DNA from: Methanogenium sp. S4BF
Lineage (GTDB): Archaea; Halobacteriota; Methanomicrobia; Methanomicrobiales; Methanomicrobiaceae
Assembly: GCF_029633965.1 (NCBI RefSeq)
Contig: NZ_CP091277.1
Coordinates: forward strand, 1,547,940 to 1,611,939
DNA: 64,000 bases
Direction of reading: 5' to 3'
The translations under genes and the position numbers were made by a program. The notes beneath the pieces were generated by a model. The model saw nothing but the letters and a program-made list of their open reading frames with translations, was not told where the DNA came from and did no database searches. Numbering within the stretch: the stretch's first letter is position 1; the number at the start of each line of letters is the position of its first letter. This document shows positions 5,401 through 42,238 of this stretch, piece after piece.

Positions 5401-6990
5401 GTGACAGATTTTACAGTACTGGTCAGTGACCCGCTGGCGGACGAAGGCGTCGACATCCTTCGTGAATATTGCAATGTCGATGTGAAGACGGGCCTCACCG
5501 AAGAAGAGCTGATTGAGATCATCGGGGCGTATGACGGACTGCTCGTGCGCAGCGGGACGCAGGTCACCGCAAGCGTGATTGCAGCAGCACACCGGCTGAA
5601 GTTCATCGGACGGGCCGGTGCAGGTGTCGACAATATTGACCTTGATGCAGCAACGGAGAAGGGCATCATCGTCGCAAACGCACCTTCCGGCAATACCCTT
5701 GCCGCCTGTGAGCACACCCTTGCCATGATGATGTCACTCTCGCGCAACATTCCGCAGGCGACCGCATCGGTCAAGGCAGGAGAGTGGAAACGCTCACAGT
5801 TCATGGGTGTCGAGCTCAACAACAAGGTGCTTGGCATTGTCGGATTCGGAAGAATCGGGCAGGAACTGGCAACACGGGCAAATGCTCTTGAGATGCGCTG
5901 TCTCGCCTACGACCCGTACATCAACCGTGAGCGGGCAAAAAAGCTCGGTGTTGAGGTCTGCACCCTGGAAGAACTCTTCCCTCAGGCAGATTTCATCACC
6001 GTCCACACACCGCTCGTCAAAGAGACGCGCCACCTCATCAACGCAGATACGATCGCGCAGATGAAGACCGGCGTGCGCATCATCAACTGTGCCCGTGGCG
6101 GCATCATTGATGAAGAAGCACTCGCAGATGCCATCGAAGCGGGAAAGGTTGCAGGCGCAGCGCTCGATGTCTACGAGAACGAACCACCCGAGGGCCAGCG
6201 CATCATCACGCTCCCGCAGGTCATCACCACCCCGCACCTCGGCGCTTCCACAGTCGAGGCACAGCAGAACGTGGCGGTTTCTGTCGCAAAACAGTGCATT
6301 GAGGTGCTTGAAGGCGGCTCAGGACGCTTCGTGGTGAACGCGCCGATGGTGCCTGCTGACCAGCAGGAGAGAATCGAGCCGTATGCACGGCTGGCACAGA
6401 AGATGGGAAAACTCCTGATTCAGCTGACAGACGGCAGAATAGAGTCCATTGAAATCGAGTACGGCGGCAAGGCGGCAGATTTCGGCCGGAATACCAAATA
6501 CATCACCCGCCTTGCACTCAAGGGCATGCTTGACCCGATTCTGCAGGAGCCGGTCAACATCGTGAATGCAGAGTTTGCCGCAACGGAACGCGGCATCCGT
6601 GTGAGCGAGAGCATCACCACCGAGTCAAAGGGATTCACCAACATCATGACCATCACGGTGAAGACCGATACGATGGAAGAGTCTGTCTCCGGCAATGTCT
6701 CTTCGGCAGACAAGATTCGCATCGTTGCCATCGGCGAGTACATGACCGACATGACACCCGGCGGCGACGTGGTCATTTCACGCCACCGTGACGTCCCCGG
6801 TGTCATCGGCCAGTTTGCAACCATCATCGGCCGGCATGATGTCAATATCGCAGGCATGCAGGTCGGCCGCAACCAACCCGGACAGGAAGCCATTATGGTC
6901 CTGAACGTGGATGCGGCAGTCCCGCAGGAAGCGATGGACGAGATCGTCAAAATCGACGGCGTCTCCACCGCGCGCTACGCACAGATATAA
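5401..6990 (+). CDS. serA: D-3-phosphoglycerate dehydrogenase
   Basis: A 529-residue long-form SerA that oxidises 3-phosphoglycerate to 3-phosphohydroxypyruvate, the first step of serine synthesis. The NAD-binding motif GIVGFGRIGQELATRA (about residues 144-159), the catalytic arginine segment INCARGGIIDEEAL (about 229-242) and the catalytic histidine in TTPHLGAST (about 279-287) are visible. After residue about 310 follow the intervening domain and a C-terminal ACT domain (HRDVPGVIGQFATIIGRHDV), which in this family senses serine. The start is GTG at 5401, preceded by a weak GGGA site. It is monocistronic by position, followed by a tRNA gene 102 nt downstream. Confidence 0.96.
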   Translation: MTDFTVLVSDPLADEGVDILREYCNVDVKTGLTEEELIEIIGAYDGLLVRSGTQVTASVIAAAHRLKFIGRAGAGVDNIDLDAATEKGIIVANAPSGNTLAACEHTLAMMMSLSRNIPQATASVKAGEWKRSQFMGVELNNKVLGIVGFGRIGQELATRANALEMRCLAYDPYINRERAKKLGVEVCTLEELFPQADFITVHTPLVKETRHLINADTIAQMKTGVRIINCARGGIIDEEALADAIEAGKVAGAALDVYENEPPEGQRIITLPQVITTPHLGASTVEAQQNVAVSVAKQCIEVLEGGSGRFVVNAPMVPADQQERIEPYARLAQKMGKLLIQLTDGRIESIEIEYGGKAADFGRNTKYITRLALKGMLDPILQEPVNIVNAEFAATERGIRVSESITTESKGFTNIMTITVKTDTMEESVSGNVSSADKIRIVAIGEYMTDMTPGGDVVISRHRDVPGVIGQFATIIGRHDVNIAGMQVGRNQPGQEAIMVLNVDAAVPQEAMDEIVKIDGVSTARYAQI

Positions 6991-33781: not shown

Positions 33782-35180
33782 ACTTTTTACCACCATGTTC
33801 AAAGAAGAATGGAGGATGCATTCAACGCTGTTTGGCAGCCTGAATTTTGCCCTCTTTCCGGTGCTCATCTTTGGAATCGCCTTTATGGGGGCATTCCTGA
33901 TCCCCCTGATTGGTACCATGATGGACCTGTCCATACTGGTAATCGCGATGCACGCAAACTTTGCCCTTCTGGGGATCATGGTCGGCTCATTCGGCCTGAT
34001 GGGAAAAGAGATCATGAACCGGCGGTTCGGGCAGGCAAGCCTGATTGCTTATTCTGCACGCAGCCTTCCGGTCTCAGAAAAACGATTGTTTCTGAATTTC
34101 GTTGTCAAAGACATCGTCTATTACTTCATCCTCTGGGTGATGCCATTTTGTTTAGGATTTATCCTGGCAGCACCGCTTCTCGGGATGAGTCTGCATTATC
34201 CGCTTCTCGCCCTTTTGACACTCACCCTCTCGTTTCTCACCGGCCTGTGTGCAGTGTTTCTGCTATCGGCGGGATATTCCCGAAGCAAGGCAGCGTTTGC
34301 AGTTGTCATTGCAATCACGGCGGCATCGGCGGCTCTGTTCGTATTCGGGTTTAACGGAGGGGTGACTGCACTTTTCCCACCGCTCACAGTCTTTTATTCA
34401 TTCTCGGCTGAAACCCTTGCAGTATCCGTGGGAGTAATTCTCACGCTGTTTGCCCTCTCGATGATCTTTTTCACCTCCGATTACCAGAGTGCGGAGAAGC
34501 ACTACAAAAACCGGCACACCCCGCTCTCGCGAAATCTTGCCGGACTGCCTGCACATGATCTGGTTGCAAAGGATTTCATCGATCTCTACCGGAGCGGTAT
34601 CGGAATCGGCCAGACCCTGTTCTCATTTCTTCTGCCGCTGGGCCTGATCTGGCTTATTCTTTCGGTCATGGGGGGATTTCTTCCGCAGGAAAAGCTGCTA
34701 TTCATTTTTGCGGTGGTAACAGGCGTCATATCCTCGACGATGTATACATGGCTGACCGAATTTGATGCGATTGCGTCGTACATGTTCCTGCCCCTTCAGA
34801 TATCGTCGGTGATAAAGGCAAAGATTGAGTCATTTACCGTCCTGCAGGCACTTCCCGTCATATTTCTGATCTGCGTTGCACTTTCTTCCGGGACTGCTGC
34901 ATTCATCCCGCATGCGCTGCTTTTATCCCTTACCACCTCATTTTTTGCACTCTCGGTCATGGTCCGGTTCTGTGGACTCTCTCCTTCCACCCTGATTTAT
35001 AATGTCAGGATCTTTCTGACCTACCTGCTTCTGATCGGCCCGCCGATACTGGTACTCATTACCCTTGCATTCATCAGTCCGCTCTTTGCGTTTGCAGGCA
35101 TCCTTCTCCTGATTCCCGCATGGCACCTCATGCACAGCGGGTTTCAGAAATGGGACAATACAGACTTTACAGGGTTCTAA
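33774..35180 (+). CDS. ABC-2-type permease
   Basis: A 468-residue membrane protein with about 11-12 hydrophobic segments, paired with the ATPase by an 8-nt overlap. The ATG at 33774 yields MFELFTTMFKEEWRMHSTLFGS, a cytoplasmic amphipathic start typical of ABC-2 permeases; a large soluble loop near residues 240-280 separates two helix bundles. It probably exports a lipid, peptide or drug, but substrate-specific residues are not recognised. An operator-like array controls the transcript. Confidence 0.8.
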   Translation: MFELFTTMFKEEWRMHSTLFGSLNFALFPVLIFGIAFMGAFLIPLIGTMMDLSILVIAMHANFALLGIMVGSFGLMGKEIMNRRFGQASLIAYSARSLPVSEKRLFLNFVVKDIVYYFILWVMPFCLGFILAAPLLGMSLHYPLLALLTLTLSFLTGLCAVFLLSAGYSRSKAAFAVVIAITAASAALFVFGFNGGVTALFPPLTVFYSFSAETLAVSVGVILTLFALSMIFFTSDYQSAEKHYKNRHTPLSRNLAGLPAHDLVAKDFIDLYRSGIGIGQTLFSFLLPLGLIWLILSVMGGFLPQEKLLFIFAVVTGVISSTMYTWLTEFDAIASYMFLPLQISSVIKAKIESFTVLQALPVIFLICVALSSGTAAFIPHALLLSLTTSFFALSVMVRFCGLSPSTLIYNVRIFLTYLLLIGPPILVLITLAFISPLFAFAGILLLIPAWHLMHSGFQKWDNTDFTGF

Positions 35181-35354
35181 CCCACCATTTCAGCATTTTT
35201 CGTTCTGTCCGGGGAACACACTCCTGAAGAATACCATGCCTGGGAACAGGGATTCTCCGAAATGATATTCTAAAAACCTGCCAGTAAAAATCAATGCTGT
35301 TGCATCGAACAGAAAAGAGGAAAAAGAGATTGAATTACCTCTCCCCAAAAGTTC

Positions 35355-36200
35355 TCACGTACCCTTGGATGCCGTATAGAATGTCACTGCATCCCCGCTT
35401 TGGAATTCTTCAGGGGACAACAGGTTTTCATGGCAGATTATGCCTGAAAAACCCTTATCCTCCAATATGGGCAGTAAATCAGAATAGGTGTAATAATGAG
35501 TCCAGAAACGATAGACCTGATATTCATCCGGTTCGGAACAGACAACTGTCTGGCTGAGAATCACATTCTCCGACTCATAATGAAATGATTCGGATAATGC
35601 CATGTACGGCCTGTTTTTCCAGAAACCGGAATCAGTAACTTCCCAGGTCTTTGCATGGATGTTCATTATCTCAGGAGTCTTTGCGTTCATGGTATCAAAA
35701 ATAAAAACCCCTCCGGGTTTTAATGCAGCATACACATTTTCAAGAAGCCGGGATCTTTCATCAGGAAGGAGCACATCAAAGTCACAAAAGATCATTACAA
35801 CAAGATCAAATTTCTCCTTAAAGCTGATATCAAGGTAATTCTGGCAAATGTATGTAATATGTGAATTATTCTCAGCAGTTTTCTCTTTTGCATATTCAAT
35901 CGAGCGTTTTGAGAGATCAACACCGGTAACTCTGTGCCCTTTTTCTGCGAAAATCTCACAGTATAACCCTGGCCCGCATCCAAGATCCAGAATGTCGGCA
36001 TTCTCTTTTCCCAACTGCTCTAAAATCCAGCTAACAGTTTTCGTGATTGCAGGCCTCTTTCTGCTTGCAAGATCCGATTCCTGACTTAAATGAGTCTTAA
36101 GAAGGAATTTTGAGATGTGTTCATCATCCCACATCACGGCATTTCCTTTTTCGTATAGTATTGGTCTTTTTGTTATTGAGCGAAGGTTTTCCACATTCAT
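35355..36200 (-). CDS. Class I SAM-dependent methyltransferase (unknown substrate)
   Basis: A 281-residue methyltransferase. Motif I is DILDLGCGPGLYCEIFAEKG (about residues 69-88), then GVDLSKRSIEYAKE and the post-motif FDLVVMIFCDFDVL, LKPGGVFIFDTMN. The N-terminus and the substrate region (about 180-260, with many aromatic residues) give no specificity. Codon use is AT-richer than in neighbouring genes, suggesting later arrival. It stands alone between the ABC exporter and serS. Confidence 0.8.
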   Translation of the reverse strand: MNVENLRSITKRPILYEKGNAVMWDDEHISKFLLKTHLSQESDLASRKRPAITKTVSWILEQLGKENADILDLGCGPGLYCEIFAEKGHRVTGVDLSKRSIEYAKEKTAENNSHITYICQNYLDISFKEKFDLVVMIFCDFDVLLPDERSRLLENVYAALKPGGVFIFDTMNAKTPEIMNIHAKTWEVTDSGFWKNRPYMALSESFHYESENVILSQTVVCSEPDEYQVYRFWTHYYTYSDLLPILEDKGFSGIICHENLLSPEEFQSGDAVTFYTASKGT

Positions 36201-36435
36201 TTTTAATCCCCGATTGTCACAATTACGTCCAAATTATCGTTCATATTTATTTCCGGATTTACTCCTGCAAACAGGTCATTCATACTGGTATTCTCATTAA
36301 GGATTAAAAATTGATTCAACAGAGGGAAATCTCAGTAATTCCCAGCATTTTCTCTTCCTATCGCAATAAAGGAGAGACCAGGGTGAAACTCAGAGCGAAA
36401 GTTACTATTGAAAAATATTCGGGAACCGGCGCCAC

Positions 36436-36443
36436 AAAAAAAA
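36436..36443 (-). terminator. Oligo-T terminator after serS
   Basis: Eight A on the plus strand (T8 in the serS transcript) lie immediately beyond the serS stop at 36447. Confidence 0.55.
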
Positions 36444-36446
36444 GTA

Positions 36447-37724
36447 TTACAGGGTTTCTGCGCCGTTCATATAGGGGCGCAGCACTTCAGGAATGACAAC
36501 CGTGCCGTCCTCTTCCTGGTAATTTTCCATAATCGCCCGGATGGTGCGGGTGGTTGCAACTGCGGTGCTGTTGAGGGTATGGACGAAGTTTTTGGTCTCG
36601 AAGTCATGGGCGTCCCGTGCCCGGATATTGAGCCGCACCGACTGGTATGCCGTACAGTTGGAGCAGGACACAAGCTCGCGGTAGGTATTCTCGCGGGGCA
36701 TCCAGACCTCGATGTCGTACTTCTTTGCAGCTACGGTTCCGATATCCCCGGTGCAGATGTCAACCACCCGGTACGGAAGGCCGAGCATCTGGAAGATATC
36801 CTCTGCGTTTTTCAGGAGTTCGTCAAGCAGACCCCATGAATCCTCGGGTTTGCAGTAGATGAACTGCTCGACCTTGTTGAACTGATGAACCCGGAAGAGA
36901 CCCCGCGTGTCAAGCCCGTGGGATCCGATTTCACGCCGGAAGCAGGGGCTTACCCCGGCAAACTTGAGCGGGAGATCTTTCTCCTCGAAGATCTCGTTCA
37001 TGTACATCGCGGCCATCGGGTGCTCGCTGGTGGCAATCAGGAACTCGTCCTCGCCGTCAATCGCATACATCACATTCTCAAAATCCGCGAGATCGGTGAC
37101 ACCCTCATATGCGGCCCGGTTCATCATATAGGGCGGGATGACCGGGGTATAGCCACGTTCGCAAAGGAGATCAAGGGCAAAGCGCTGGAGGGCCAGGTCC
37201 ATGAGCGCCAGATTGCCTTTCAGCATGTAAAAGCCGGAGCCGGATATTTTGGCTGCCCGCTCAAACTCTGCAAGGCCCTTTTCGACCGCAAGTTCACCGT
37301 GGTTTTTCATCTCAAAAGAAGGAACAAGAGGTTCACCCCAGGTTTTCGCCTCGACGTTTTCCGAGTCGTCGCATCCCACGGGAACACTCTCATGAAGGAT
37401 GTTGGGAATCCGCATCTGGTAGAAGCGCAGTTTCTGGTTTATCTCCTCAAGTGCCGCCTCATCTTCCTTAATCTTTGCAGGAAGGGATTTTGCCTCTTCA
37501 AGGAGCGCTGTCACATCCTGTTTTGCCTTCTTTGCTTCCTTTATTTCCCGGCTGATGATATTGCGCCGGTTTCGCATGACATTGATCTCGATCTGCATCT
37601 CACGCGACCGGATATCCTTCTCCAGCAGATCGTCGATCCAGGCAAGCTTTTCGGCATCGCCCCTCTTGGTGAGATCCGCCCTGACGACGTCCGGGTTGTT
37701 TCGTATAAATTTTAATTCGAGCAT
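36447..37724 (-). CDS. serS: Seryl-tRNA synthetase (common bacterial/eukaryal type)
   Basis: A 425-residue class II synthetase charging tRNA-Ser. The N-terminal coiled-coil arm (about residues 25-105, rich in Lys/Glu) and the catalytic core are complete: motif 2 around PCFRREIGSHGLDTRGLFRV and motif 3 around GAETL-proximal NSTAVATTRTIRAIMENYQ, with VPVGCDDSENVE before the core. It is the common SerRS, not the rare methanogen form found in Methanococcus. Monocistronic with an oligo-T terminator. Confidence 0.96.
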   Translation of the reverse strand: MLELKFIRNNPDVVRADLTKRGDAEKLAWIDDLLEKDIRSREMQIEINVMRNRRNIISREIKEAKKAKQDVTALLEEAKSLPAKIKEDEAALEEINQKLRFYQMRIPNILHESVPVGCDDSENVEAKTWGEPLVPSFEMKNHGELAVEKGLAEFERAAKISGSGFYMLKGNLALMDLALQRFALDLLCERGYTPVIPPYMMNRAAYEGVTDLADFENVMYAIDGEDEFLIATSEHPMAAMYMNEIFEEKDLPLKFAGVSPCFRREIGSHGLDTRGLFRVHQFNKVEQFIYCKPEDSWGLLDELLKNAEDIFQMLGLPYRVVDICTGDIGTVAAKKYDIEVWMPRENTYRELVSCSNCTAYQSVRLNIRARDAHDFETKNFVHTLNSTAVATTRTIRAIMENYQEEDGTVVIPEVLRPYMNGAETL

Positions 37725-39876: not shown

Positions 39877-39948
39877 CAGATGTATCTCACCAATACTATC
39901 CTGTCCGTACCAGAAAGCCTTCACCCCGACTGCTGCAGATTAACAAAT

Positions 39949-40512
39949 TCAGATCGTCACCACTTCGTCGGCAATGAGAACCCCAAGACTATCATCAATG
40001 ATCTGCACCCGCCAGGTCCCCGACGCAAGAGATTTCGGGTATGACAACGCCCCACCGAGGATGCTCTCATCTGCGATTCTTGCATATGAATTTGTGATGT
40101 AGTACGGCCCACTGATGTCGGAAGAAAGGGTAAAACAGTACAATTCTGCACCCTGAGATACCGTCTTCCCTGTCATTGTCACTGATGAAATGAGTTCATG
40201 TGACCCCCCATCCGGATCAATGAGAACAAATCGGGTGCCCTCAATGCCGCTATGAGTCCCTTCCTCATAGTCAAAATACAGCGTATTGCAGGAAACAAAA
40301 TGAATCTTGATTGAATCGGCATCCCACGTGCCAGGTGCCGAGAGTGCAGGGACCGCTTCACCATCAACAACTGCATACCGGGTACGATAGCCATCCATGG
40401 AACTGACATCTCCAAGGTGCATCAGATTGCCAAAGATAATGCCAACAAGCGCCACCACAATAAACACCGTAAGGATACCCCCGATAACCTCCGACACCCC
40501 GGTATCATCCAT
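39949..40512 (-). CDS. Archaeal type IV pilin-like protein (copy 2)
   Basis: A 187-residue paralogue of the protein at 38571. The start MDDTGVSEVIGGILTVFIVV carries the classic archaeal pilin N-terminus with cleavage after G5 and glutamate at +3. Ectodomain blocks match the first copy (ALSAPGTWDADSIKIHF, LIDPDGGSHELISSVTM, YYITNSYARIADES, GTWRVQIIDDSLGVLIAD). It may be the second subunit of one pilus or an alternative surface pilin. The upstream 40513-40628 region holds its promoter. Confidence 0.82.
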   Translation of the reverse strand: MDDTGVSEVIGGILTVFIVVALVGIIFGNLMHLGDVSSMDGYRTRYAVVDGEAVPALSAPGTWDADSIKIHFVSCNTLYFDYEEGTHSGIEGTRFVLIDPDGGSHELISSVTMTGKTVSQGAELYCFTLSSDISGPYYITNSYARIADESILGGALSYPKSLASGTWRVQIIDDSLGVLIADEVVTI

Positions 40513-40628
40513 TCACAAATGTGGATTACGGTATCGGATAAATACTGACCATATGACATGGCCCACAGGAAAGGCATGATTCGGTTAAAAGAGGAAAAAT
40601 ATACCTATTTTGCCGGGAGAGGATGTGG

Positions 40629-40692
40629 TCATTCATCCCCACAAAAATGATCACCCTGTCCACAGGTTCACAGGAAGCATCTTCCGTTCAGG
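40629..40692. repeat. 64-nt direct repeat, left copy
   Basis: This 64-nt sequence (TCATTCATCCCCACAAAAAT at its start, ending CTTCCGTTCAGG) recurs in the same orientation at 41793-41856, with two mismatches. The pair flanks the cyclase-like gene and its surroundings at a distance of 1164 nt. Confidence 0.92.
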
Positions 40693-40725
40693 ACAATGGA
40701 GGAGTCACGAAAATTTGTAACTTTC

Positions 40726-41580
40726 TTATGAAGGAGGAGTGTACTGTAATCGCAATTCTTTAATCGGGATACCTCCACAATGAATAAGAAAATCAGTAGT
40801 GTTCTTAATCTTAATTTCAATATTTTTCTCATCAATGCTCTTGTTGTGCTGAGAAAAGGCATCCACAACCCTTTTTTGAATGATGGCTACATCTGTTGTG
40901 CTGTTCAGATGTTCAAGGCCGGGCACAATTTGTCTGAATCTTAATATATCATCCCACCTTAGTGCGGGATTTCGCCGATTTCTGCCATCAGGAATCCTGT
41001 GATCCGATACAATAAGTTCCTGATTGAATGGATGGCTTCGAACGCGAATATTTTCAATCCCACGCCAGTTTACAATTTGTGTTGGTGGCTGTTGTTGCAT
41101 CTTTTCTACTACAGAGTCACAGAAAATAACTCCACTCCAGCTACATTTTTTCTCAGCCATATAGGCTTCGAGAATTGGTTTTCCAAAAAAATACCGATCA
41201 GTTACAATATATTCACCAAAACTAATGGCACCACGTAACGGCACTCCTTTTTCAAATGCTAATCGAGTTAATATTGCTGCTTTTTCAATTAGTGTTGGTC
41301 CGAAATTATGGATATGCCCATTTGGTAATTGAGGTACTTTTTCATAGAGAATAATGGTGTCAGAAAAAACAAAGGTGCTGGTAGGATGGATACATAAATC
41401 CTGTGAGGGATCAACCCCACCCATTGTTACTGCCTCATTATCCAGAGTGTCAAGGATAGGACCAATAATGTCGCATAAATATTCAAGACCATTCTTTGCG
41501 ATAATCTCTTTAAATCCTAAAATATCAAAAAATCCAAAGAAACCGGTTATCTTCTGTTTATCACTATTGTTAGATTTCAT
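40726..41580 (-). CDS. Class III nucleotide-cyclase-like protein of unknown role
   Basis: A 284-residue soluble protein. It has the spaced motif set of a class III cyclase-like fold: FFDILGF at residues 17-23 (D19), VFSDTIILY at 71-79 (D74), and RGAISFGE at 116-123 with FFGKPILEAYMAEKK at 131-145, where the cyclase core and its dimer wing would lie. No membrane or sensory domain is fused. Whether it makes a cyclic nucleotide is unknown; some stand-alone homologues belong to Pycsar-type defence, but no effector gene is adjacent here. It is AT-rich relative to the window and lies between 64-nt direct repeats, as if imported. Confidence 0.55.
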   Translation of the reverse strand: MKSNNSDKQKITGFFGFFDILGFKEIIAKNGLEYLCDIIGPILDTLDNEAVTMGGVDPSQDLCIHPTSTFVFSDTIILYEKVPQLPNGHIHNFGPTLIEKAAILTRLAFEKGVPLRGAISFGEYIVTDRYFFGKPILEAYMAEKKCSWSGVIFCDSVVEKMQQQPPTQIVNWRGIENIRVRSHPFNQELIVSDHRIPDGRNRRNPALRWDDILRFRQIVPGLEHLNSTTDVAIIQKRVVDAFSQHNKSIDEKNIEIKIKNTTDFLIHCGGIPIKELRLQYTPPS

Positions 41581-41903
41581 AGATTCAAATGATTAATTGG
41601 TTCGGATAGAGAAAAATGAAACGTCATCAGTATAGAATAACCAAAATGCTGTGAATGCATGCATTCTATTCACTGCCTGCTTATCAAATGGGGCATAATT
41701 ACATCCAAAATTCATCTGGAAGAATGGTTTATTTATGGCGAGAATCGGAGGCCCATTCAGACCAGACAAACAAGGGGGAAAGAAAGAATTCATCATTCAT
41801 CCCCACAAAAATGATCGCCCTGTCCACAGGTACACAGGAAGCATCTTCCGTTCAGGTTTCGCCTGTGCAGATGCCACTGCTGCCCCGTGCTCATCCACGG
41901 CTT
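41581..41903. other. AT-rich spacer holding the right direct repeat
   Basis: No gene is supported here. The first 210 nt upstream of the cyclase-like gene are AT-rich and probably hold its promoter. The 64-nt repeat lies at 41793-41856, and the last 45 nt are the 3' flank of the pyrophosphohydrolase pseudogene. Confidence 0.4.
41793..41856. repeat. 64-nt direct repeat, right copy
   Basis: Matches 40629-40692 with two substitutions (at the ATCACC/ATCGCC and GGTTCA/GGTACA positions). It ends 47 nt from the end of the pyrophosphohydrolase pseudogene, so the repeat was probably single before the cyclase-like segment arrived. Confidence 0.92.
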
Positions 41904-42238
41904 TCACCTCCTATCCCCGACAAACACCAGCACCGAATATTCAAAAAACCCGCCCCGCTCGAGAGCCTTTGTCTGCCGGATCTGCTCCAGCTCCTCTGCT
42001 GAAACGCCCCTTGAGTTCAGCCACCCGGTAACAGACCTCAAGGAGGTCGGCAAGCTCCTCGGGGTCTTTTGATTCGAGATATTCCTCCAGCTCCTCGATG
42101 AGCCTGTATTCCAGATGCCGGAGAAACGTCCGGTCAGTGTATTGCAGCACCTCACATGGCCTTCCCTGAGAGCGAATAATCTCAGGGATGCGGTCACGGA
42201 CGGCCTTTTGGGATTTATTCTGTGTAGTAATGGCTCAT
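41904..42238 (-). pseudogene. MazG-like nucleoside triphosphate pyrophosphohydrolase, frameshifted twice
   Basis: Pieces in two frames make one MazG-like protein of about 105 residues: RDRIPEIIRSQGRP, EYRLIEELEEYLESKDPEEL with the EEyxE-type metal helix, ADLLEVCYRVAELKG with the E-x-A-D pattern, then, in another frame, VSAEELEQIRQTKALERGGF and FEYSVLVFVGDR to the stop. The start ATG at 42238 (MSHYYT) reaches a stop before joining the RDRIPE frame, and a second shift is at the GGGG tract near 42007-42010. With two breaks it is probably a dead gene. The start overlaps the stop of the upstream antitoxin-like gene (ATGA). Confidence 0.75.

What the first reader, a model, noticed from the sequence alone, without database searches (positions are those of the whole stretch)
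40629..41856. Cyclase-like gene on an AT-rich segment between 64-nt direct repeats
Seen: a 64-nt sequence with two mismatches occurs on both sides of one gene, 1164 nt apart, and the enclosed DNA is clearly AT-richer. The gene has FFDILGF, FSDT and RGAISFGE in class III cyclase order, without sensor or membrane domains. Known: stand-alone class III cyclase-like proteins occur in Pycsar-type defence, normally with an effector. Inference: this is a one-gene cargo inserted by recombination at the repeat, perhaps signalling or defence. No recombinase or effector is present nearby.
Basis: partly seen in the sequence, partly recalled or inferred. Interest (0 to 1): 0.75.

Follow-up and report, generated by a model that had tools for sequence, protein, structure and literature searches.

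The report
Inserted cyclase-like gene between repeats
A methane-producing archaeon carries a single foreign gene, slipped into the tail end of a decaying gene, that encodes an odd relative of the enzymes that make cyclic AMP; some of its relatives sit beside antiviral genes or in bacterial viruses, so it may belong to the arms race with viruses, but this is untested.

Summary
Two 64-nt copies (62/64 identical) flank a 1100-bp segment of 37.5% GC holding one 284-aa gene; the repeat has no third copy in the genome. A same-genus genome has the empty site: one copy at the same place between the same two neighbours. The repeat is not an intergenic element: it encodes the last 20 codons and stop of a MazG-like gene (a frameshifted relic here) whose Cys-containing tail recurs in some relatives. 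That is the anatomy of insertion at a gene's 3' end, without an integrase. The protein models as a class III nucleotidyl cyclase fold. It belongs to a family without a Pfam, NCBIfam or PADLOC model (phrog_23933, function unknown), seen in 14 of 392 sampled genomes of its phylum and in phage contigs; a minority of loci lie beside type I/II restriction, Shango, Pbe or a Panacea antitoxin. All 43 surveyed members keep both metal aspartates; none has the Asn/Arg transition-state pair. The window gene itself has no defence neighbour. Most likely: a horizontally moved, defence-linked nucleotide-acting enzyme, probably growth-arresting, not a classical Pycsar cyclase. Fold and insertion are well supported; function is inferred.

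The parts
40726..41580 (-). 284-aa stand-alone class III cyclase-fold protein (the cargo gene); metal Asp D19 and D74, conserved R116, G117, A139, E143, K257
   Evidence: ORF; model and fold matches; residue survey; codon-position identity with the G103 homolog 58/70/35% suggests protein-level selection
40693..41792 (.). inserted AT-rich segment (1100 bp, 37.5% GC) absent from the orthologous site in G001
41793..41856 (-). right repeat copy: last 20 codons plus TGA stop of the MazG-like gene (LNGRCFLCTCGQGDHFCGDE*), contiguous with the gene body
40629..40692 (-). left repeat copy: second, detached copy of the same 3' end, with a stop codon where the right copy has Cys; the inferred remainder of the original target site
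41857..42231 (-). body of the MazG-like target gene, frameshifted relic (homology 42231-41998 and 41920-42207)
   Evidence: the name MazG-like is recalled from motifs, Pfam gives no family for the intact G023 relative
39949..40512 (-). 187-aa left flanking gene (N-terminus looks pilin-like, recalled label); same neighbour at the empty site
41581..41792 (.). 212-bp upstream region carried with the cargo gene, presumably its own promoter (inference)

Best explanation
A single foreign gene with its own upstream region was inserted into the 3' end of a MazG-like gene in one lineage of an archaeal genus. The incoming DNA carried, or regenerated, a copy of the gene's last 20 codons and stop, leaving 64-bp direct repeats (inferred att-like event; integrase lost or supplied in trans, or short-homology recombination of a circle). 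The cargo encodes a class III cyclase-fold protein of an unnamed family (phrog_23933) that is scattered among archaea, bacteria and phages and in several places sits with antiviral systems. It probably binds a nucleotide through two metal aspartates (conserved, not assayed) but lacks the canonical Asn/Arg transition-state pair. The most likely role is a defence-linked or toxin-like enzyme that changes nucleotide pools or makes a nucleotide product that arrests the cell, acting without a CNB-type receptor (inference).
For: Empty site with one copy and both flanks in place in G001; repeat equals the C-terminal tail up to the stop codon, a tail also found in 5 of 15 MazG-like copies elsewhere; no third copy in the genome; insert far AT-richer; cargo protein not found in the 6 other genomes held of the genus at E<=1e-4. 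Fold: pTM 0.76, VIA Z 13.2 to Rv1264, the 50 listed entries are all class III cyclases. Defence or TA neighbours confirmed by HMM: type I RM (L039, L047, L071), Shango SngB-SngC (L044), PbeA-PbeC (L043), HaeII RM (L064), Panacea antitoxin (L069). Phage side: 27 of 27 aligned members match phrog_23933 at E<=1, the window protein at 2e-7. D19 and D74 in 43 of 43; N137 with R/K141 in 0 of 43. No PF00027 protein in the genome. Published precedent, abstract and passages seen: a Panacea-neutralised putative nucleotide cyclase toxin of a Burkholderia prophage (PMC8832971).
Against: The window gene has no defence neighbour: 0 of 10 nearby ORFs match PADLOC. For 9 of 13 other archaeal loci and 21 of 24 viral ones I could assign no defence system, and no background rate was measured. 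Absence of PF00027 is weak evidence: the four archaea among the 14 controls do not ring either (10 bacterial controls do, names). None of 15 other MazG-like copies has a duplicated tail within the 6-16 kb searched downstream, so att-site behaviour is unproven. Mean pLDDT is only 71.6, residues 170-207 below 50. Whether the published prophage toxin belongs to this family was not tested. Same-genus G004 holds a distant paralog (E 4.9e-7), so the genus is not wholly without the family.
Confidence: 0.55

Rival explanations
1. A working cyclic mononucleotide synthase, as in Pycsar or ordinary cAMP signalling, whose receptor is encoded elsewhere.
For: Class III fold; both metal Asp kept in 43 of 43.
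Against: None of 43 members has Asn at 137 together with Arg or Lys at 141, while two archaeal PF00211 proteins aligned in the same register have Asn and Lys; no PF00027 protein in the genome (weak, since the archaeal controls lack it too); in a PADLOC scan of 27 members the best match of any was E 0.0071.
Confidence: 0.18
2. A catalytically dead cyclase-fold protein that senses or binds a nucleotide or a phage component, an accessory or inhibitor (for example of restriction systems) in phages and defence operons.
For: Loss of the Asn/Arg pair; placement among type I RM genes in three loci; phage carriage fits an anti-restriction role too.
Against: Invariant metal aspartates and near-invariant K257 (42 of 43) and E143 (37 of 43) suggest that catalysis is kept; Panacea and Shango partners do not fit one anti-restriction role.
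Confidence: 0.21
3. The gene is ancestral in the genus and was lost in relatives by recombination between the repeats, rather than gained here.
For: Direct repeats allow precise loss; the empty site comes from a draft genome of 59% completeness.
Against: Strongly deviant GC and GC3; the nearest homolog lies in a different family at an unrelated locus; a single-copy 3' end of this kind belongs to MazG-like genes elsewhere.
Confidence: 0.06
4. A rival only for the way in: the insertion came by short-homology recombination of DNA carrying a fragment of a close relative's MazG-like gene, not by site-specific recombination.
For: No integrase nearby, one PF00589 match in the whole genome; no second insertion of this kind found; 2 mismatches between the copies.
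Against: A direct repeat that includes and restores a gene's 3' end is a usual layout for integrases of mobilizable elements (PMC5704250, passages seen).
Confidence: 0.4

Closest known systems
Class III nucleotidyl cyclases (PF00211; e.g. Rv1264 1y11, soluble adenylyl and guanylyl cyclases)
   Same: Same fold (VIA Z 13.2, rmsd 4.6 over 171 residues); D19 and D74 align with the metal Asp of two archaeal PF00211 proteins
   Different: No Asn/Arg pair in 43 of 43; position 70, where canonical enzymes carry a base-recognising Lys (recalled), is variable; near-invariant K257 in a C-terminal helix; 3 of 27 members match PF00211 at E<=1, best 0.0036
Pycsar pyrimidine cyclases (PycC)
   Same: Stand-alone class III-type cyclase fold; defence link in part of the family
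   Different: No PADLOC match for the protein or ten neighbours; no PF00027 protein in the genome
PanT of Burkholderia prophage phi52237 (Panacea-neutralised putative nucleotide cyclase toxin, PMC8832971)
   Same: Phage-borne, no CDD domain, cyclase similarity seen by HHpred (paper); Panacea partner as for our L069
   Different: Membership in this family not tested (sequence not fetched); no Panacea gene recognised beside the window gene (by eye)
CIME-type elements (att-flanked, integration genes lost; PMC5704250)
   Same: Direct repeats, one including a gene's 3' end; no integrase
   Different: Only 1.1 kb and one gene; no active relative or second insertion found; archaeal host

Membership tests
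Class III nucleotidyl cyclase fold | cyclase core matching solved class III structures | tested here: met
   73 Foldseek matches at E<=1e-3; the 50 listed are class III cyclases; listed Z 11.7-13.2
Class III nucleotidyl cyclase (catalytic) | two metal-binding Asp | tested here: met
   D19 and D74 in 43 of 43; same columns as the metal Asp of L093 and L094 (role of these Asp recalled)
Class III nucleotidyl cyclase (catalytic) | transition-state Asn and Arg (or Lys) | tested here: not met
   N137 with R/K141 in 0 of 43; N at 137 in 2, R at 141 in 1, K at 141 in 7
Pfam Guanylate_cyc PF00211 | match over gathering score | tested here: not met
   no hit for the window protein
Pycsar | cyclase recognised by PADLOC models | tested here: not met
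   no PADLOC family for the window protein
Pycsar | adjacent effector with a cNMP receptor domain (PycTM or PycTIR) | tested here: not met
   ten neighbouring ORFs give no PADLOC match at E<=0.01; no PF00027 in the genome
Pycsar | makes cUMP or cCMP | not testable with these tools
   needs an assay
phrog_23933 family | profile match | tested here: met
   E 2e-7 for the window protein; 27 of 27 members at E<=1, best 2.1e-65
CIME / att-flanked element | direct repeats that include the 3' end of a target gene, empty site with one copy | tested here: met
CIME / att-flanked element | derived from an element with integrase, or mobilised by one | tested here: inconclusive
   no integrase at the site; no second insertion behind 15 MazG-like copies
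Panacea (PanAT) toxin-antitoxin | Panacea antitoxin gene adjacent | tested here: inconclusive
   none recognised by eye at the window (Pfam not run on its neighbours); present for L069

The most novel reading that the evidence does not exclude
phrog_23933 is an undescribed single-protein antiviral or toxin family that re-uses the class III cyclase fold for a different nucleotide reaction (two metal Asp plus conserved Lys/Glu, no Asn/Arg), is traded between archaea, bacteria and phages as a one-gene cargo or as an add-on to restriction, Shango, Pbe and ParA-coupled modules, and works without a cyclic-nucleotide receptor.
Probability: 0.33. Interest if true: 0.75.

Novelty: new variant of a known kind. 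Interest (0 to 1): 0.5.

Why it matters
Surveys that start from PF00211 or PADLOC models would miss this protein, although it keeps half of a cyclase active site and its relatives keep company with several unrelated antiviral systems. If it is an enzyme, it shows cyclase-fold chemistry without the Asn/Arg pair, testable with one small protein. The window also gives a clean case of a one-gene cargo entering an archaeal genome at a gene's 3' end.

Tried and rejected
Intergenic repeat element: rejected, two copies in 2.51 Mb. Chance: rejected. Target-site duplication by an IS: judged unlikely from general knowledge (64 bp is long; no transposase seen by eye). Recurrent att hotspot: looked for a duplicated tail behind 15 MazG-like copies in 14 stretches (6-16 kb downstream); none, the one hit being a tandem MazG-like copy in G016. 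Flanking repeat of the G103 homolog: only short weak matches; its surroundings hold dispersed repeats instead. Single-protein scan of genome contigs: nothing; with A2 two loci. Viral-contig scans with A2 and A6: nothing. L069 and L060 proteins against the phages collection: nothing. hhalign of A8 against one PF00211 protein did not align; adding two such proteins with MAFFT gave the register. PDB sequence searches: the window protein only chance matches (best E 0.63), the profile none. Pfam and PADLOC gave nothing for the 196-aa and 219-aa neighbours in L045 and L039; I had read the L045 one as AbiU2-like by eye, without tool support, and do not count it. The pooled PADLOC scan of 47 neighbours (neighbours of archaeal loci not yet scanned plus seven chosen from viral loci and one more from L039) lists families such as PDC-S02, PDC-S41 and PD_DExK but not which member they belong to, so they are not counted. 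No control set was scanned, so enrichment over background is not measured. Rows dropped before the 43-member count: repeat loci of one contig or identical proteins (L035, L037, L051, L061, L062, L067, L074, L076) and the gapped G476 fragment. Paper searches for this family showed Pycsar and PanAT work as the only relevant items; the statement that I saw no description of the family is limited to those listings.

Full report
What is there. The two 64-nt copies lie at 40629-40692 and 41793-41856 and differ at two positions. A whole-genome search gave these two and two 14-nt matches at E 1.7. The 1100 bp between them has 37.5% GC in a 55.9% GC window; only 0.04% of 1100-nt windows are as AT-rich. 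It holds one gene, 40726-41580 on the minus strand, 284 aa. The genome carries MCR alpha (E 1.5e-65), so the host is a methanogenic archaeon.

What the repeat is. A same-genus genome, G001, has the orthologous site with a single copy: window 40628-40693 aligns at 81% to L014:5467-5400, the left neighbour (39948-40512) to L014:6161-5595 and the right neighbour (41920-42207) to L014:5297-5009; no part of the insert matches between them. Read on the minus strand, the right copy is LNGRCFLCTCGQGDHFCGDE followed by the stop; the repeat ends exactly at that stop codon. Relatives of the right neighbour in other genera carry the same kind of tail inside one open frame: G023 LSFLCTCEKTDHIFEEE, G018, G012 LLGTCERSDYVYED, G109 RRLLCTCERGDHVFEED and G007 ICRCERSDFIYESD. 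That is 5 of the 15 copies read, which include paralogs in G000 and G001; 10 lack the tail. I call the gene MazG-like from recalled motifs; Pfam gave no family for the G023 protein. In the window the gene is frameshifted, and G002 and G004 hold broken remnants. So the repeat is the 3' end of a protein gene. Integrases of mobilizable elements often leave this layout, and an element that kept att sites but lost integration genes is called a CIME (PMC5704250, passages seen). No integrase lies in the insert; the genome has one PF00589 recombinase, at C1:181114, more than 1 Mb away. No other MazG-like copy shows a second tail in the 6-16 kb searched downstream. Site-specific insertion followed by loss, and short-homology insertion, both remain open.

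What the protein is. Pfam and PADLOC gave nothing for the window protein and PDB sequences only chance matches. A protein search of 150 relatives found itself, a 49% identical homolog in G103 and a remote one in G082. With a five-row profile, 14 of 392 genomes drawn from the phylum match at E<=1e-6, the window genome included; a G476 fragment is one more close relative. Identity with the G103 gene by codon position is 58, 70 and 35%, as expected under selection on the protein. Viral-contig scans gave 3, 2 and 27 loci with three profiles, partly the same contigs, and nothing with two others. All 27 rows of A8 match phrog_23933, of unknown function, at E<=1, the window row at 2e-7; 3 of 27 match PF00211 at E<=1 (best 0.0036); NCBIfam and PADLOC gave only isolated matches of single members, E 0.006 or more.

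The AlphaFold2 model (27 sequences, mean pLDDT 71.6, pTM 0.76) has the core well predicted and residues 170-207 poorly. The 50 Foldseek rows and the 50 VIA-align rows listed are class III cyclases, Rv1264 first (E 2.3e-5; Z 13.2, rmsd 4.6, 171 aligned). The viral library gave one match at E<=1e-3, a giant-virus protein. Among 43 members (repeat loci left out) D19, D74 and G117 are invariant, R116 is kept in 40, K257 in 42, A139 in 40, E143 in 37. With two archaeal PF00211 proteins added, D19 and D74 fall on their metal aspartates, position 137 on their Asn and 141 on their Lys; no member has Asn with Arg or Lys there. The roles of these residues in canonical cyclases are recalled. In a FastTree tree the window protein groups with G103 (support 0.998), then with a Verrucomicrobiales protein (0.86), and members from archaeal genomes are scattered among bacterial and viral ones. 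This fits horizontal movement, though many deep branches are weak.

Neighbours. The window gene has none of interest: ten ORFs between 38049 and 46193 match no PADLOC model at E<=0.01. Elsewhere, HMM-confirmed: HsdS, a 219-aa protein, cyclase and HsdR in L039; HsdM, two cyclases and HsdS in L047 (HsdS by eye); HsdS, cyclase and an HsdM N-terminal domain in L071; SngB-SngC-cyclase (Shango) in L044; PbeA-PbeC-164 aa-cyclase in L043; C5 methylase-HaeII nuclease-cyclase in L064; Panacea-cyclase in L069. That is 4 of 13 other archaeal loci and 3 of 24 non-redundant viral ones. I scanned chosen neighbours, so these are minima; no background rate was measured. A ParA-type ATPase gene overlaps or abuts the family gene in L065, L068 and L072 (HMM reported for L068 only). 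Several viral copies lie, by eye, between terminase, portal, head or tail genes, as prophage cargo genes often do.

How it may work. A published Panacea partner, PanT of Burkholderia prophage phi52237, is a putative nucleotide cyclase by HHpred; in E. coli it inhibits transcription more than translation and triggers RelA-dependent ppGpp (PMC8832971, abstract and passages seen). It is a lead, not a test: I did not fetch its sequence. Pycsar pairs a cyclase having two catalytic aspartates with PycTM or PycTIR (PMC11224242, passages seen); here no neighbour matches PADLOC and the genome has no PF00027 protein. The last point is weak, because the archaeal controls lack PF00027 too. My best reading is a nucleotide-acting, growth-arresting or defence-linked enzyme without classical cNMP signalling. 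Shown: insertion, target, predicted fold, conserved residues, family spread. Inferred: catalysis, defence role, mechanism of insertion.

Verdict. In the libraries used here the family appears only as an unnamed phage cluster; as a cyclase-fold family with a changed active site and, in part, defence company it is a new variant of a known kind.

Noticed in passing
L016:5230-6225 and 6540-6576 (genome G004): Another single ORF (331 aa, no Pfam match) lies near a half copy of the MazG-like tail in the corresponding region of a same-genus genome; a second copy of the tail was not seen. The region may collect single foreign genes.
   Followed up: partly
L065:496-2300, L068:4912-6630, L072:4931-6690: A ParA/MinD-type ATPase gene overlaps or abuts a family member in three viral contigs, as in a translationally coupled two-gene module (HMM for L068, the others by eye).
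   Followed up: partly
L047:8280-12119 (genome G082): Two different family members in tandem sit between the modification and specificity genes of a type I restriction locus.
   Followed up: partly
L091:1045-5672 (genome G023): The intact MazG-like gene lies between a 385-aa protein that looks HNH-like (by eye) and an AAA ATPase that looks McrB-like (by eye; Pfam AAA_5), so it may itself be a defence-associated gene.
   Followed up: no
window 41653-41666: Perfect 14-nt palindrome GAATGCATGCATTC within a larger dyad (GTGAAT...ATTCAC) upstream of the cargo gene; possible operator.
   Followed up: no
window about 34800-36500: A second AT-rich patch around a 281-aa methyltransferase-like ORF (35355-36200, GC 0.411).
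   Followed up: no
L038:5259-5679 (genome G103): Two dispersed repeat elements (about 200 nt and 50-120 nt) with many copies in genomes of that genus lie just upstream of the G103 homolog.
   Followed up: no
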